Positions 1 to 5,524 of a stretch of 39,574 nt of DNA are shown here, one piece after another. The stretch spans positions 1 through 39,574 of the forward strand of contig JAAUSG010000019.1 in NCBI GenBank assembly GCA_012034055.1, in the 5' to 3' direction. Position 1 is the stretch's first letter. Every line of letters begins with the position of its first letter. The position numbers and the translations under genes were made by a program. The DNA is from Leptolyngbyaceae cyanobacterium RU_5_1. Lineage in GTDB: Bacteria > Cyanobacteriota > Cyanobacteriia > Leptolyngbyales > Leptolyngbyaceae. The notes beneath the pieces were generated by a model. That model was given only the letters and a program-made list of their open reading frames with translations. It was not told the DNA's origin and ran no database searches.

Positions 1-204
1 AGCGGCAAATATCCTCAGAAAAGTAGCCACACAGCTAGGTTTAGACTTAGCCAGGGTGGGTAGGGCAGTCTTGACTCTGCCGAAACGATACGGGCTTGAC
101 TCACTGTCAAAATCGTATCGCAAGCAAAGCGAAGAGGCACGGCTTCAGCCTGCCTCGTAGCATCCGCTTAGAATCTCCGTTGCTTTAGCTCGGAGAGAAG
201 TCAA
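1..204 (+). mobile_element. right end of an IS200/IS605-type insertion sequence
   Basis: After the tnpB tail comes a subterminal hairpin: CTCCG (175-179) pairs with CGGAG (191-195) around an inner GCT/AGC stem. Nine bases on from the hairpin is TCAA (201-204). Elements of this group have a hairpin near the right end and a short cleavage tetranucleotide, TCAA in the well-studied IS608. The same 3' segment would encode the TnpB guide RNA (omega RNA) scaffold. The exact right boundary is inferred, and the left end is outside the window. Confidence 0.6.
2..160 (+). CDS. tnpB: C-terminal end of TnpB-type IS200/IS605 transposase-associated protein (5' part outside window)
   Basis: An open frame runs in from the left edge for 52 codons and ends at TAG 158-160. 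It begins AANILRKVATQLGLDL and continues through GRAVLTLPKRYG to LQPAS. This matches the usual tail of cyanobacterial TnpB/OrfB proteins, where the RuvC-III motif (an Asp before N-A-A-N-I) is followed by a basic, poorly conserved end. The catalytic Asp would lie just left of the window. TnpB is an RNA-guided nuclease carried by IS200/IS605 and IS607 elements. Only the tail is visible, so activity cannot be judged. The identification is from remembered family pattern. Confidence 0.72.
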   Translation, partial: AANILRKVATQLGLDLARVGRAVLTLPKRYGLDSLSKSYRKQSEEARLQPAS

Positions 205-776
205 CTCCCCATATTGCGTTTCATTTGATCCAACTCTTCTTCCGCTTCCCAGCGTTTGAACTGTTGCTCTAGCGGATCAGCACTGCTGTGAATGTAGCTG
301 GGCCCAGAATTCCAACCCACGCTATCCCAACGTTGGTCAGCTTTGGCGGCAGCACGAGCCGCTTGAGCCTCAACCACCTTTTTCTGGACTTCCTGACGCC
401 GCCGCTGAATTTGCTGCTGAAGTTCCTGAGTCTGTTTGGTGCGCTCTTTGATCATTTCCATCTGGCCCCATTTCTGGTTGCCCTGACGCAGGAGCGCCGC
501 TTCCCGCTCCTGAGCTGGTTCCGCCAAATCGAGTCTGCCCTTGGCTTTAGCCTTCTCGATCCGAGCGTGCCAGAGCTGAATTTCTTGCGCGATCGCCAGA
601 ATCTCATCCTGGATCTGCTGCTCCTTCACCTTCAAGTCGGTCATCAACTTCAAGGTTTCCTCTTCCTGCTCCCGCAGCTTTTCTTCTAACGCCATCAGTT
701 CCAGGTGAGGATTATCGCGCAAAAACTCCTCAAGCCGTGTTTCTAAAAACCGACTGAAATCATCGAATAGACCCAT
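201..776 (-). CDS. TIGR04376-type conserved cyanobacterial coiled-coil protein
   Basis: This is a 191-residue soluble protein starting MGLFDDFSRFLETRLEEFL. Residues 25-145 are almost entirely heptad-rich, Gln/Glu/Lys/Arg-rich helix, a long predicted coiled coil, followed by a short tail ending LDQMKRNMGS. The start and overall form match the cyanobacterial family TIGR04376, whose function is unknown to me. The arrangement resembles PspA/IM30-like helical proteins, but I do not claim homology. The stop codon (201-203 on the minus strand) is made of bases belonging to the right end of the neighbouring IS element, so the insertion lies exactly at the 3' end of the gene and may have changed the last residues. 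Confidence 0.75.
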   Translation of the reverse strand: MGLFDDFSRFLETRLEEFLRDNPHLELMALEEKLREQEEETLKLMTDLKVKEQQIQDEILAIAQEIQLWHARIEKAKAKGRLDLAEPAQEREAALLRQGNQKWGQMEMIKERTKQTQELQQQIQRRRQEVQKKVVEAQAARAAAKADQRWDSVGWNSGPSYIHSSADPLEQQFKRWEAEEELDQMKRNMGS

Positions 777-2415: not shown

Positions 2416-2428
2416 TTATGGGTTGCAT

Positions 2429-2517
2429 GGCGTTATCCCCGTTCCGTTGCGGACTATCGATTGCGTGGCGTCATCCCCGATTCCGTTGCGAATCATTGAT
2501 TGGGTAGCGTCATCCCC
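2429..2517. repeat. 39-base direct repeats inside the RAYT frame
   Basis: Two near-identical units of about 39 bases plus a partial third unit share the core TCATCCCCGATTCCGTTGCG or its variant. On the minus strand each full unit encodes GDDATQS(M/I)(I/V)RNG(I/T). The unit length is a multiple of three, so the reading frame is kept. Confidence 0.75.
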
Positions 2518-2518
2518 C

Positions 2519-2546
2519 GTAGAGACGCGATTAATCGCGTCTCTAC
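2519..2546. repeat. perfect 28-base palindrome (REP-like)
   Basis: The half-site GTAGAGACGCGATT is followed directly by its exact reverse complement, giving a perfect 28-base palindrome inside the RAYT reading frame, where it encodes the peptide GRDAINRVST. I recall this sequence as a common dispersed repeat in filamentous cyanobacterial genomes. A likely reading is a REP unit mobilised by RAYT-type enzymes. Confidence 0.75.
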
Positions 2547-2877
2547 CAATATTGGGGTTGTGTCCTCGATCGCTAATGACGATGATTCCGTGGACATGAT
2601 TGGGCATCACCACAAATTCATCCAACGCAACCCGGTCAAAATGGTTAGGAATTGTGTGCCACACGGTTTGAACAATTTGTCCCGCCGTCGATAATTGCAT
2701 GGTTTCTGCAACAATGTCGCCAAAAACGGTTGGCGATCGCGTGTACAAAGGGTCACGAAATACCACCCATTCGATGCATAATCCCAATTTGGACACCGGG
2801 CCGATTCAATCCGATATTTGTTTTTGTAGAGGGTCATTGTAGACGCAGCCGCAACACTCCCTCTACAATTCCCCAAT

Positions 2878-3609: not shown

Positions 3610-4833
3610 ATGGCGATTGATCCTGGGCAAGAACAGAATATTGAGAATTCCTCATTTCAAGATAGCTTGACCCAACAAGGTCAAGCGCAGGGCAATTCAG
3701 TTCAGAATCAGAATCTGGGCACTCAGTTCGTCCAGCTTATTCAGCCAATTGCTGATTTAACTAATCTATCTAGCAAAAGCTCAACCTACTATTTTCCTGG
3801 CTTGGTTTTAGCAGTAGCTGGTGGTGTGATTGCTTGGACTTTAAATCCAATTGCACTTGTAGCAGGTAGTGTATTGTTTGGAGCTGCTTGCTATTTGTGT
3901 TTTTTAGGATTTAAGCACGAGCAATCTGAAATCAGAAGAGAATCAAATACAGGTAGCCCTTCAGATGCGGATCAAAACGTTTATATGAGCGGTGTTAACT
4001 ATAACGATTGCATCATCAATATAAACGGACATAACATTGATTTGAACCAGGACTTATCACAAGCTTTTTCTGAGATTCAAGATGTACTACTAAATCAGAC
4101 GCAGAGCCTTGAATTAAGCTTTGAAGATGCTAAGCAGCAAGTGATTCACGACTTGCTATCTCAGGCAAGTTCTAAACCTGCTGAAATTAGAAAAAGACTC
4201 GTTAAATTAGCCAAGCATTTGAGTAATGCCTCTAGTGATTCTGATGAAATAAAGGCAGCAGATGAAGTTATTGAATTTGCTGCTAGTAATTCTTACTCTT
4301 CATTTCAAGATCCGATTTTGGTGGTATCAGACAGATATCACAAGCTTGACACCTTACTTAGATCCAAGCAATGGGAAAAAGCTGATGAAGAGACAGCAAA
4401 GATCATATTAAGACTATTTAGAAAAAGAGAGAATGGTGAAACCTGGTTTACAGATAGTGACATTGCATCACTTCCTCGCAAGGATCTTAATACTTTAAAT
4501 AAATTATGGTTGAATCACAGTGGAGAAAGGTTTGGTTTTAGTGTGCAACAGCGCATTTGGAATAAACTTCAGGAAGACAACAAACATATATTTCAGGGAT
4601 ACTCGAATGATTTTGGTGATCTTGTAGGCTGGCGCGTTGAAGGAAGTTGGATCTATTACTCCGATCTAATTTATTCTCTTAAAGCGCCAGTTGGACATTT
4701 CCCCGCACTAGCTATGATTGACCCTTACAGTCTTCAATATAATCTTCATCGTTTTCAGCTAAATCATTCAGTTTTTAATACTTTTATGGGACGCCAGTAC
4801 AATCCGCTTAATAGTGAAAAATTAAAACAATGA
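3610..4833 (+). CDS. membrane-anchored GUN4 domain protein
   Basis: The protein has 407 residues. Residues 9-40 are Gln/Asn-rich (SLTQQGQAQGNSVQNQN). Residues 60-103 hold one long or two short membrane segments (YYFPGLVLAVAGGVIAW, then IALVAGSVLFGAACYLCFL). Residues 121-230 are a beta-rich then helical linker. Residues 243-370 are a GUN4 domain (YHKLDTLLRSKQWEKADEET, then DLNTLNKLWLNHSGERFGFS, then GWRVEGSWIYYSDLIYSLKA). Classical GUN4 binds protoporphyrin and Mg-protoporphyrin and activates Mg-chelatase. Cyanobacteria also carry GUN4 domains fused to kinases and other signalling modules, and this architecture belongs to that divergent group rather than to chlorophyll synthesis. The stop overlaps the next start by four bases (ATGA at 4830-4833), coupling it to the toxin-antitoxin pair. 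Confidence 0.8.
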   Translation: MAIDPGQEQNIENSSFQDSLTQQGQAQGNSVQNQNLGTQFVQLIQPIADLTNLSSKSSTYYFPGLVLAVAGGVIAWTLNPIALVAGSVLFGAACYLCFLGFKHEQSEIRRESNTGSPSDADQNVYMSGVNYNDCIININGHNIDLNQDLSQAFSEIQDVLLNQTQSLELSFEDAKQQVIHDLLSQASSKPAEIRKRLVKLAKHLSNASSDSDEIKAADEVIEFAASNSYSSFQDPILVVSDRYHKLDTLLRSKQWEKADEETAKIILRLFRKRENGETWFTDSDIASLPRKDLNTLNKLWLNHSGERFGFSVQQRIWNKLQEDNKHIFQGYSNDFGDLVGWRVEGSWIYYSDLIYSLKAPVGHFPALAMIDPYSLQYNLHRFQLNHSVFNTFMGRQYNPLNSEKLKQ

Positions 4834-5108
4834 ATACAGAAGTGATTATAGAAGTGACGGCAAACGGTCAACTTGAATTACCCACAGAAGTGAGGGAAAG
4901 ACTTTCTCCTGGTGAGAAATACAAGGTTTCAATGACTGAAGATTCCATTGTGCTAGAGAAAGTTCAAAAAACTGAGATTAATTTGGATGATTGGTTTCGA
5001 CGAATTGAGGAAGTTGGTTCTGATCCTGAACAACCGACTCTACACGAACTCGCTGATATGGTGAAAGAAATTCGGCGAGATCGGAAAACCAGGAAACCCC
5101 AAACATGA
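4830..5108 (+). CDS. AbrB/MazE-type antitoxin (VapB-like)
   Basis: This is a 92-residue protein. The N-terminal 45 residues (VIIEVTANGQLELPTEVRER, then LSPGEKYKVSMTEDSIVLEK) form a swapped-hairpin SpoVT/AbrB-like DNA-binding domain. The acidic-to-basic tail (LDDWFRRIEEVGSDPEQP, then VKEIRRDRKTRKPQT) is the usual flexible toxin-binding part. It overlaps the PIN toxin gene by ATGA at 5105-5108 and is itself overlapped by the GUN4 gene. VapB antitoxins neutralise their PIN toxin and repress their own operon. Here any autoregulation would have to act from upstream of 3166 or from within the GUN4 gene, because there is no room for a promoter at the junction. Confidence 0.8.
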   Translation: MNTEVIIEVTANGQLELPTEVRERLSPGEKYKVSMTEDSIVLEKVQKTEINLDDWFRRIEEVGSDPEQPTLHELADMVKEIRRDRKTRKPQT

Positions 5109-5524
5109 GAATTGTGTTGGACACAAATGTTTGGGTCTCAGGATGGTTGTGGGGCGGTATCTCAGGGCGGATTATTCAATTAGCCGAAACAGGAACTCTC
5201 ACGGTCTGCACTTCAGAAACTTTGCTTGAAGAACTTCAGATAGTTTTAGAGCGACCCAAAATTCAAATTAAGCTAAATCAACTTGACGGCACAGTAGAAG
5301 CCTTGATGAGAAAAACTCGGCAGCTTGCAGAAGTTTATCCAGACACGTCCTTGAATGTACCTCAACTGCGAGATCCAGACGATGCAATAGTTTTAGCGAT
5401 CGCCCTAATCGCAAGAGCGGAGGCGATCGTCACAGGTGATCAGGATTTGTTAGTGCTGGATGAATTTGAAGGGATTCCAATTTTGACGCCAACCGACTTT
5501 TTGAATCGTTATTTTTTTGAGTAG
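5105..5524 (+). CDS. PIN domain toxin (VapC-like ribonuclease, PIN_3 type)
   Basis: The protein has 139 residues and is full length for the family. The metal-binding acidic residues are visible: Asp6 in MRIVLDTNVW, Glu42 or Glu43 in SETLLEEL, the RDPDD cluster at 89-93, and Asp112/Asp114 in VTGDQDLL. PIN toxins are Mg-dependent ribonucleases that cut tRNA or rRNA when released from their antitoxin. The start ATG overlaps the antitoxin stop by four bases, the usual arrangement for a type II pair. A single HIP1 site at about 5396 lies inside the gene; the cassette upstream has none. Confidence 0.87.
   Translation: MRIVLDTNVWVSGWLWGGISGRIIQLAETGTLTVCTSETLLEELQIVLERPKIQIKLNQLDGTVEALMRKTRQLAEVYPDTSLNVPQLRDPDDAIVLAIALIARAEAIVTGDQDLLVLDEFEGIPILTPTDFLNRYFFE

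What the first reader, a model, noticed from the sequence alone, without database searches (positions are those of the whole stretch)
1..215. TnpB right end and predicted guide RNA abut the stop codon of a conserved gene
The tnpB tail, terminal hairpin (175-195) and TCAA (201-204) end exactly at the TIGR04376 stop codon, part of which is IS sequence. In known IS605 elements the omega RNA scaffold covers the tnpB 3' end and right end, and the guide is the flanking DNA. Here the guide would be the first 16-20 bases after 204, which is the 3' end of the TIGR04376-type gene.
Basis: partly seen in the sequence, partly recalled or inferred. Interest (0 to 1): 0.5.

Follow-up and report, generated by a model that had tools for sequence, protein, structure and literature searches.

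The report
Mobile element landing on stop codon
The window begins inside a common kind of bacterial jumping gene that carries an RNA-guided DNA cutter; it landed exactly on the stop signal of a neighbouring gene and supplied a new one, and related elements appear to do the same now and then, which would let such insertions do little harm.

Summary
Three contigs of the same genome share the element end and diverge exactly after base 204, so TCAA (201-204) is the true right end of an IS608-like IS200/IS605 element; bases 2-160 are the tnpB tail. The terminal hairpin shows compensatory changes among 69 cyanobacterial relatives. The last six bases (199-204) are complementary to 71-76, in the loop of a small hairpin inside tnpB, with covariation: the known guide-RNA pseudoknot. 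So about 64-204 looks like an omega-RNA scaffold whose guide starts at 205. Transcription and cutting are untested.

The whole stop codon of the TIGR04376 gene (203-201) and one base of its last sense codon are element sequence. Most relatives end ...MG(R/K)-stop; here it is MGS-stop. The inferred empty site is YTAT|CTCCCCAT, on the gene strand AGA-TAR. Such targets and the end TCAA are stop codons in one register, so the insertion swaps stop for stop. In 191 sampled right ends this recurs 13 times: 13 of 163 ends that break no long frame (8.0%), against 2.1-2.6% of comparable sites. It happens with and without tnpB, so neutral sieving is the likeliest reason. The element is ordinary; the stop-swap register is the interesting part.

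The parts
2..160 (+). 3' end of tnpB (last 52 codons and TAG stop at 158-160)
   Evidence: 100% match of 2-127 to the C69 tnpB; frame read through the 127-base contig overlap; C69 tnpB is PF01385 and NF040570
64..81 (+). small hairpin GGCAG/CTGCC of the predicted omega RNA; apical loop 69-76
   Evidence: the six-base complement of the element end lies in such a loop in 36 of 37 sequences that have it 118-138 bases from the end; random positions 28%
71..76 (+). TTGACT, predicted pseudoknot partner of 199-204 (a second TTGACT at 96-101, also in a loop closed by 4 pairs, is not at the conserved distance)
141..150 (+). second small hairpin GGC-TTCA-GCC
   Evidence: a stem of 3 bp or more closing such a tetraloop in 35 of 73 sequences, shuffled mean 6.0, maximum 13
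171..174 (+). GAAT, right guide tetranucleotide (G_R) at the foot of the terminal hairpin
   Evidence: invariant in 70 of 70 aligned right ends (GAAT was also a search criterion); identical to IS608 G_R (PMC5934647 passages)
174..196 (+). subterminal right-end hairpin
   Evidence: 32 both-side changes against a shuffled mean of 3.7; 98.2% of cells paired
201..204 (+). TCAA, right cleavage site (C_R) and last bases of the element
   Evidence: boundary shared by three contigs; IS608 C_R is TCAA
201..203 (-). TGA stop codon of the TIGR04376 gene, wholly element sequence
205..224 (+). predicted guide / flanking target, the antisense of the TIGR04376 3' coding end
   Evidence: position after the boundary; guide length is inference from known TnpBs
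201..776 (-). TIGR04376 family gene, intact (191 aa; last codon inferred changed to Ser)
   Evidence: NCBIfam full-length hit; relatives' C-termini

Best explanation
Bases 1-204 are the right part of an IS608-like IS200/IS605 element that moves as single-stranded DNA by a TnpA of the Y1 type and carries a TnpB nuclease. Its 3' part (about 64-204) is the scaffold of the TnpB guide RNA, closed by a pseudoknot between 71-76 and 199-204; the guide is read from the flank starting at 205. The element inserted 3' of a YTAT tetranucleotide that covered the stop codon of the convergent TIGR04376 gene (AGA-TAR on the gene strand). Because the element's own last bases, TCAA, read as T-TGA on that strand in the same register, the gene kept an in-frame stop and only its last residue changed (Arg to Ser). 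The guide would therefore point TnpB at the un-inserted end of this gene. Shown: boundary, gene intactness, conserved RNA fold signals, recurrence of the stop swap. Inferred: the original tetranucleotide at this copy, the residue change, transposition route, transcription, cleavage.
For: Boundary. TnpB; TnpA with PF01797 on C357. Hairpin covariation. Pseudoknot: 52 of 73 ends have their own six-base complement upstream, partner-swapped mean 18.3, maximum 27; 36 of 37 in an apical loop, the topology described for ISDra2 (PMC10711439 passages). Native gene end: 20 of 29 relatives end G-(R/K)-stop right after residue 190. Left ends: own C357 TTTAT|AGAAAT (boundary set by similarity to relatives); TTAT in 9 of 12 copies fetched from one genome; CTAT or TTAC in others. 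Recurrence: 13 stop-frame genes in 191 right ends; 13 of 163 against 109 of 5117 non-disruptive sites, p = 8.5e-5.
Against: The left end and left flank of this very copy are not in the assembly: C69 carries a copy whose tnpA is cut after 10 codons, C357 one with tnpA, and neither could be assigned to the window's right end. No un-inserted allele was found in the own genome. In the pattern-found sample the pseudoknot complement is barely above the swapped control (42 of 115 against mean 32.7, maximum 39). In 7 of the 80 protein-found loci no right end was placed. Some related left ends do not fit a YTAN target (L249, L263-L271). No RNA data.
Confidence: 0.87

Rival explanations
1. Dead right-end fragment: the window copy is a truncated relic, and the hairpin and pseudoknot are inherited but make no guide RNA.
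For: C69, one of two left halves found, has lost tnpA after 10 codons; the window copy's own left half is missing.
Against: The tnpB tail is open to its stop, C334 differs from the window by one base in 1-204 and C119 by none in 78-204, and the C69 tnpB frame is uninterrupted with RuvC-type residues conserved in relatives.
Confidence: 0.25
2. The stop-codon landing is pure neutral sieving: insertions fall on any YTAN site, those that break genes are lost, and stop-swapping ones survive. No target preference and no TnpB role are needed.
For: YTAN targets start with a reversed stop codon, so survivors at gene ends are expected. In the second sample 4 of the 7 stop-frame cases (L183, L216, L250, L282) show no TnpB-type motif upstream, so TnpB is not required.
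Against: 8.0% observed against 2.1% expected among non-disruptive sites (2.6% if sites that also lie in another ORF are counted). The background rests on mechanical ORFs and counts non-coding sites that may be under constraint, so the excess may be inflated.
Confidence: 0.65
3. The TIGR04376 gene naturally ends MGS-TGA and the element merely sits next to it.
For: The protein aligns to the whole family profile; two distant relatives (L047, L048) end in Ser.
Against: The TCAA that gives the stop is identical to the ends of two other copies at unrelated sites; of the 22 relatives with exactly one residue after the glycine none has Ser (20 R/K, 2 Q).
Confidence: 0.02

Closest known systems
IS608 (ISHp608) of Helicobacter pylori, IS200/IS605 family
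   Same: G_R GAAT, C_R TCAA, tnpA and tnpB, subterminal hairpins, insertion 3' of a tetranucleotide (PMC5934647 passages); divergent gene order seen on C357
   Different: target here inferred as YTAT rather than TTAC; the TnpB of this group lacks the zinc-ribbon cysteines
ISDra2 TnpB and its reRNA/omega RNA
   Same: scaffold ends at the element boundary, guide = right flank, pseudoknot between guide-adjacent bases and an apical loop (PMC10711439 passages)
   Different: TAM TTGAT there (PMC11844463 passages); phmmer finds no PDB chain similar to this TnpB at E 0.001
IS605B stem-loops beside Borrelia lipoprotein genes
   Same: IS605 end sequence overlapping the 3' end of coding regions (PMC2775950 passages)
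   Different: there the left stem-loop overlaps the last codons; no stop-for-stop register in the passages read

Membership tests
IS200/IS605 (IS608-like) | right end GAAT-hairpin-TCAA at the element boundary | tested here: met
   boundary; motif and covariation
IS200/IS605 (IS608-like) | Y1 HUH TnpA encoded by the element | tested here: inconclusive
   full TnpA (PF01797, NF033573) on the C357 copy; cut after 10 codons on C69; this copy's left half is missing
IS200/IS605 (IS608-like) | insertion 3' of a fixed tetranucleotide, no target duplication | tested here: inconclusive
   YTAT inferred from C357 and relatives; left flank of this copy unknown
TnpB / OMEGA nuclease | TnpB family match with RuvC-type D-E-D residues | tested here: met
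   NF040570 136.5 bits, cut-off 100; D208 in 79, E342 and D396 in 80 of 80 relatives (which Glu is catalytic is inferred)
TnpB / OMEGA nuclease | omega-RNA scaffold ending at the element boundary with pseudoknot | tested here: met
   (sequence evidence only; weak in the pattern-found sample)
TnpB / OMEGA nuclease | transcribed guide RNA and TAM-dependent cleavage | not testable with these tools
   no RNA or biochemical data
TnpB / OMEGA nuclease | C4 zinc ribbon near the C-terminus (common, not universal, in TnpB; recalled) | tested here: not met
   two CxxC in the aligned region in 0 of 80 relatives, and none in the query by eye; taken as a subfamily trait since NF040570 passes its cut-off
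TIGR04376 | full-length profile match | tested here: met
   271.5 bits, cut-off 125, profile 1-189 of 189

The most novel reading that the evidence does not exclude
In IS608-like elements the target tetranucleotide (YTAN) and the element's last four bases (TCAA) are stop codons in the same register on the opposite strand, so insertion at the end of a convergent gene swaps stop for stop and gene 3' ends become safe landing sites. Where the element carries tnpB, the guides drawn from these conserved coding ends, with the stop codon as part of the TAM, would further home on or hold the element in those genes across strains. TCAA would then be constrained three ways: DNA cleavage site, RNA pseudoknot and host stop codon.
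Probability: 0.12. Interest if true: 0.65.

Novelty: new member of a known kind. Interest (0 to 1): 0.4.

Why it matters
It gives a simple geometric reason why a very common family of transposons can sit at the ends of intact genes at little cost, and it says where some TnpB guides come from: the last codons of conserved genes, with the stop codon inside the TAM. Both points can be tested in sister strains and in existing genome collections.

Tried and rejected
Left flank of this copy: in the closest relative the gene next to TIGR04376 encodes a protein that I recall as PipX-like; in the own genome its match lies on C32 beside different sequence, so synteny did not give the left flank. Rfam search of four own loci found nothing relevant (one chance-level hit). 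phmmer against PDB found no match at E 0.001. A single-sequence RNA fold of 70-224 (z -3.25) pairs the element end with 71-76 as a plain long-range stem; the loop position in relatives argues for a pseudoknot. The two loose right-end matches near relatives' TIGR04376 genes (L028, L042) are not hairpins at the gene end. The first background was replaced by ORF-based ones because it counted gene interiors as free sites. A TnpB cause of the excess is not supported: by a motif check, 3 of 48 second-sample ends with a TnpB-type motif and 4 of 72 without are stop-frame; together with the first sample, all found through tnpB, that is 9 of 119 against 4 of 72. I lowered the probability of the novel case for this reason. 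Literature searches that did not show a statement of stop-for-stop landing (open-licence PMC only, some lists capped). Passages were read in PMC2775950, PMC3119063, PMC5934647, PMC10711439, PMC11844463, PMC7290912 and PMC11043419; all other papers were seen as search listings only, and none was read whole.

Full report
What is there. The window is contig C205 of a 382-contig draft genome and starts at the contig end. Bases 1-204 recur in three other places: C334 carries 1-204 (one difference, position 128), C119 carries 78-204 and C69 ends in 1-127. The three contigs that pass base 204 (C205, C334, C119) have unrelated flanks from base 205 on, so the element ends with TCAA at 201-204. Reading through the C69 overlap gives a TnpB of 451 residues ending at TAG 158-160. 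Its first 441 residues match PF01385 and NF040570. A second left half, on C357, carries a divergent full TnpA (PF01797, NF033573); the C69 copy keeps only the first 10 codons of tnpA. Which left half belongs to the window is not resolved.

The right end. I took the best 80 relatives of TnpB from one genome scan (381 candidates encoded a relative). A right end (GAAT, stem, TCAA) was placed in 73 of 80, ten of these by a looser fallback; one of the 73 (L100) is not credible and was dropped from the counts below, though its flanks stayed in the background. The alignment holds 70 distinct ends, window included; 71 were distinct, and I left out L074, whose loop is long. GAAT and TCAA are invariant in it, partly because they were used to find the ends. 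The stem was also a criterion, so pairing itself is expected; the kind of pair was not, and 32 cells changed on both sides against a shuffled mean of 3.7 and 0 to 8 in slid versions. IS608 has the same G_R and C_R (PMC5934647 passages). A separate pattern search found a stricter form of the right end in 74 of 292 genomes of the phylum; the backwards control gave one hit in all.

The guide RNA. The last six bases of the element are complementary to a six-base stretch upstream in 52 of 73 sequences (window and 72 relatives); with partners swapped between loci the mean is 18.3 and the maximum 27. Seven-base complements occur in 0 of 73, swapped mean 4.2, so the match stops at six. In 37 sequences, window included, the partner lies 118-138 bases from the end with Watson-Crick pairs throughout; 36 of these 37 sit in the apical loop of a hairpin, against 28% for random positions. 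In a second group the partner lies 66-82 bases from the end, 11 of 11 in a loop, random 31%. Among the 37 the partners covary: TTGACT with AGTCAA 24, TTGAGT with ACTCAA 5, TTGATG with CATCAA 4, TTGACA with TGTCAA 3, TTGAAC with GTTCAA 1. This is the pseudoknot reported between the bases flanking the guide and the loop of stem-loop 1 (PMC10711439 passages). In the pattern-found sample the signal is weak: 42 of 115 (G-U pairs allowed) against a swapped mean of 32.7 and maximum 39; many of those ends are of the TGTCAA type, where several protein-found relatives show only a five-base match. In the window the scaffold would be about 64-204 and the guide would start at 205.

The stop codon. TIGR04376 was found in 36 of 39 genomes searched, the own genome included. 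Of 29 relatives examined, 20 end with one R or K after the glycine at position 190, 2 with Q, and 7 differ, two of them ending in Ser. Here the codon is AGT and the stop TGA, and the T and TGA are element bases. Target sites of relatives are TTAT in 9 of 12 copies fetched from one genome and in some further groups, TTAC or CTAT in others; some groups do not fit (L249, L263-L271). The own C357 left end reads TTTAT|AGAAAT. YTAT|CTCCCCAT gives AGA-TAR on the gene strand, as in the relative L025 (AGA-TAG). No un-inserted copy was found in the own genome with up to 3 mismatches. The 20-base guide differs from the matching stretch at 3 to 16 positions in the 25 of 29 relatives where it could be compared.

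Recurrence. I asked how often a right end supplies the stop of a convergent ORF of at least 100 codons. First sample (protein-found): 6 of 71, with 55 without a long frame, 9 next to an open plus-strand frame and 1 cutting a minus-strand ORF in another frame. Second sample: 120 places picked by hand from the listed part of the matches: 7 of 120, with 95, 14 and 4. No flank is shared between the samples. Background: all TTAC, TTAT and CTAT sites in the flanks of the same loci; stop-type sites are 70 of 3581 and 39 of 1536 of the sites that break no ORF of 100 codons. Together 13 of 163 against 109 of 5117, Fisher p = 8.5e-5; second sample alone p = 0.021; among convergent ORFs touched, 13 of 18 are in the stop register, binomial p = 8.5e-4 against one third. 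Counting stop sites that also lie in another ORF, the background is 136 of 5144 (2.6%), p = 6.0e-4; leaving out the two 105-codon cases as well, p = 0.005. The window is not in these counts. Limits: ORFs are mechanical, and insertions were classed from the right flank only.

The genes look intact: a fructosamine kinase domain reaches residue 314 of 315, DUF1517 199 of 200, the FGE-sulfatase domain 475 of 477. Each of the 13 was scanned in Pfam or NCBIfam or both; 12 have a family match at E 0.001, some below the curated cut-off, and L250 has none in Pfam. Three sites with a clear left end were joined: L201 gives RTLLR-stop, L059 VKRM-stop, L111 EDIK-stop; given a YTAN target this follows from the register, so it illustrates rather than proves.

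Is TnpB involved? In the second sample only 21 of 120 ends have a relative of this TnpB within 2.5 kb upstream, and 48 of 120 have a TnpB-type motif (33 in an open stretch of 300 residues or more); of the 7 stop-frame cases 3 have the motif and 4 do not. Rates with and without are alike, so the stop swap looks like a property of the element ends, not of TnpB.

Reading. The element and its guide RNA are ordinary members of a known kind. The point that I did not find in print (searches named in Tried and rejected, open-licence PMC only) is that target and element end are both stop codons in the same register. Neutral sieving explains most of it; the threefold to fourfold excess is suggestive. 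A role for TnpB in holding such insertions is speculation, and the check above speaks against it as the main cause.

Noticed in passing
L004 (contig C69) 212-244, minus: The C69 copy of the element has tnpA reduced to its first 10 codons: a TnpB with a left side that no longer encodes a transposase.
   Followed up: partly
L004 1-101 and 98-189: Two short repeats, each with many similar copies in the own genome (about 87-95% identity), lie just left of the C69 copy.
   Followed up: no
L002 (contig C334) 1446-1500, minus strand: The C334 copy is followed by a frame ending KPVEPETLVAAIVELCA-stop, which resembles the end of a response regulator (recalled), perhaps a gene cut by the element.
   Followed up: no
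L052-L131: None of 80 TnpB relatives has the two CxxC pairs of a zinc ribbon, while the RuvC-type residues are kept.
   Followed up: partly
second sample, e.g. L183, L282: Most right ends found by pattern (72 of 120) show no TnpB-type motif upstream: probably many non-coding derivatives of these elements in cyanobacteria.
   Followed up: partly
window 2416-2876, minus: Overlapping frames resemble a broken REP-associated tyrosine transposase (recalled from the sequence, not searched).
   Followed up: no
window 4830-5524, plus: Two small adjacent ORFs look like an AbrB-type antitoxin and a PIN-domain toxin (recalled, not searched).
   Followed up: no
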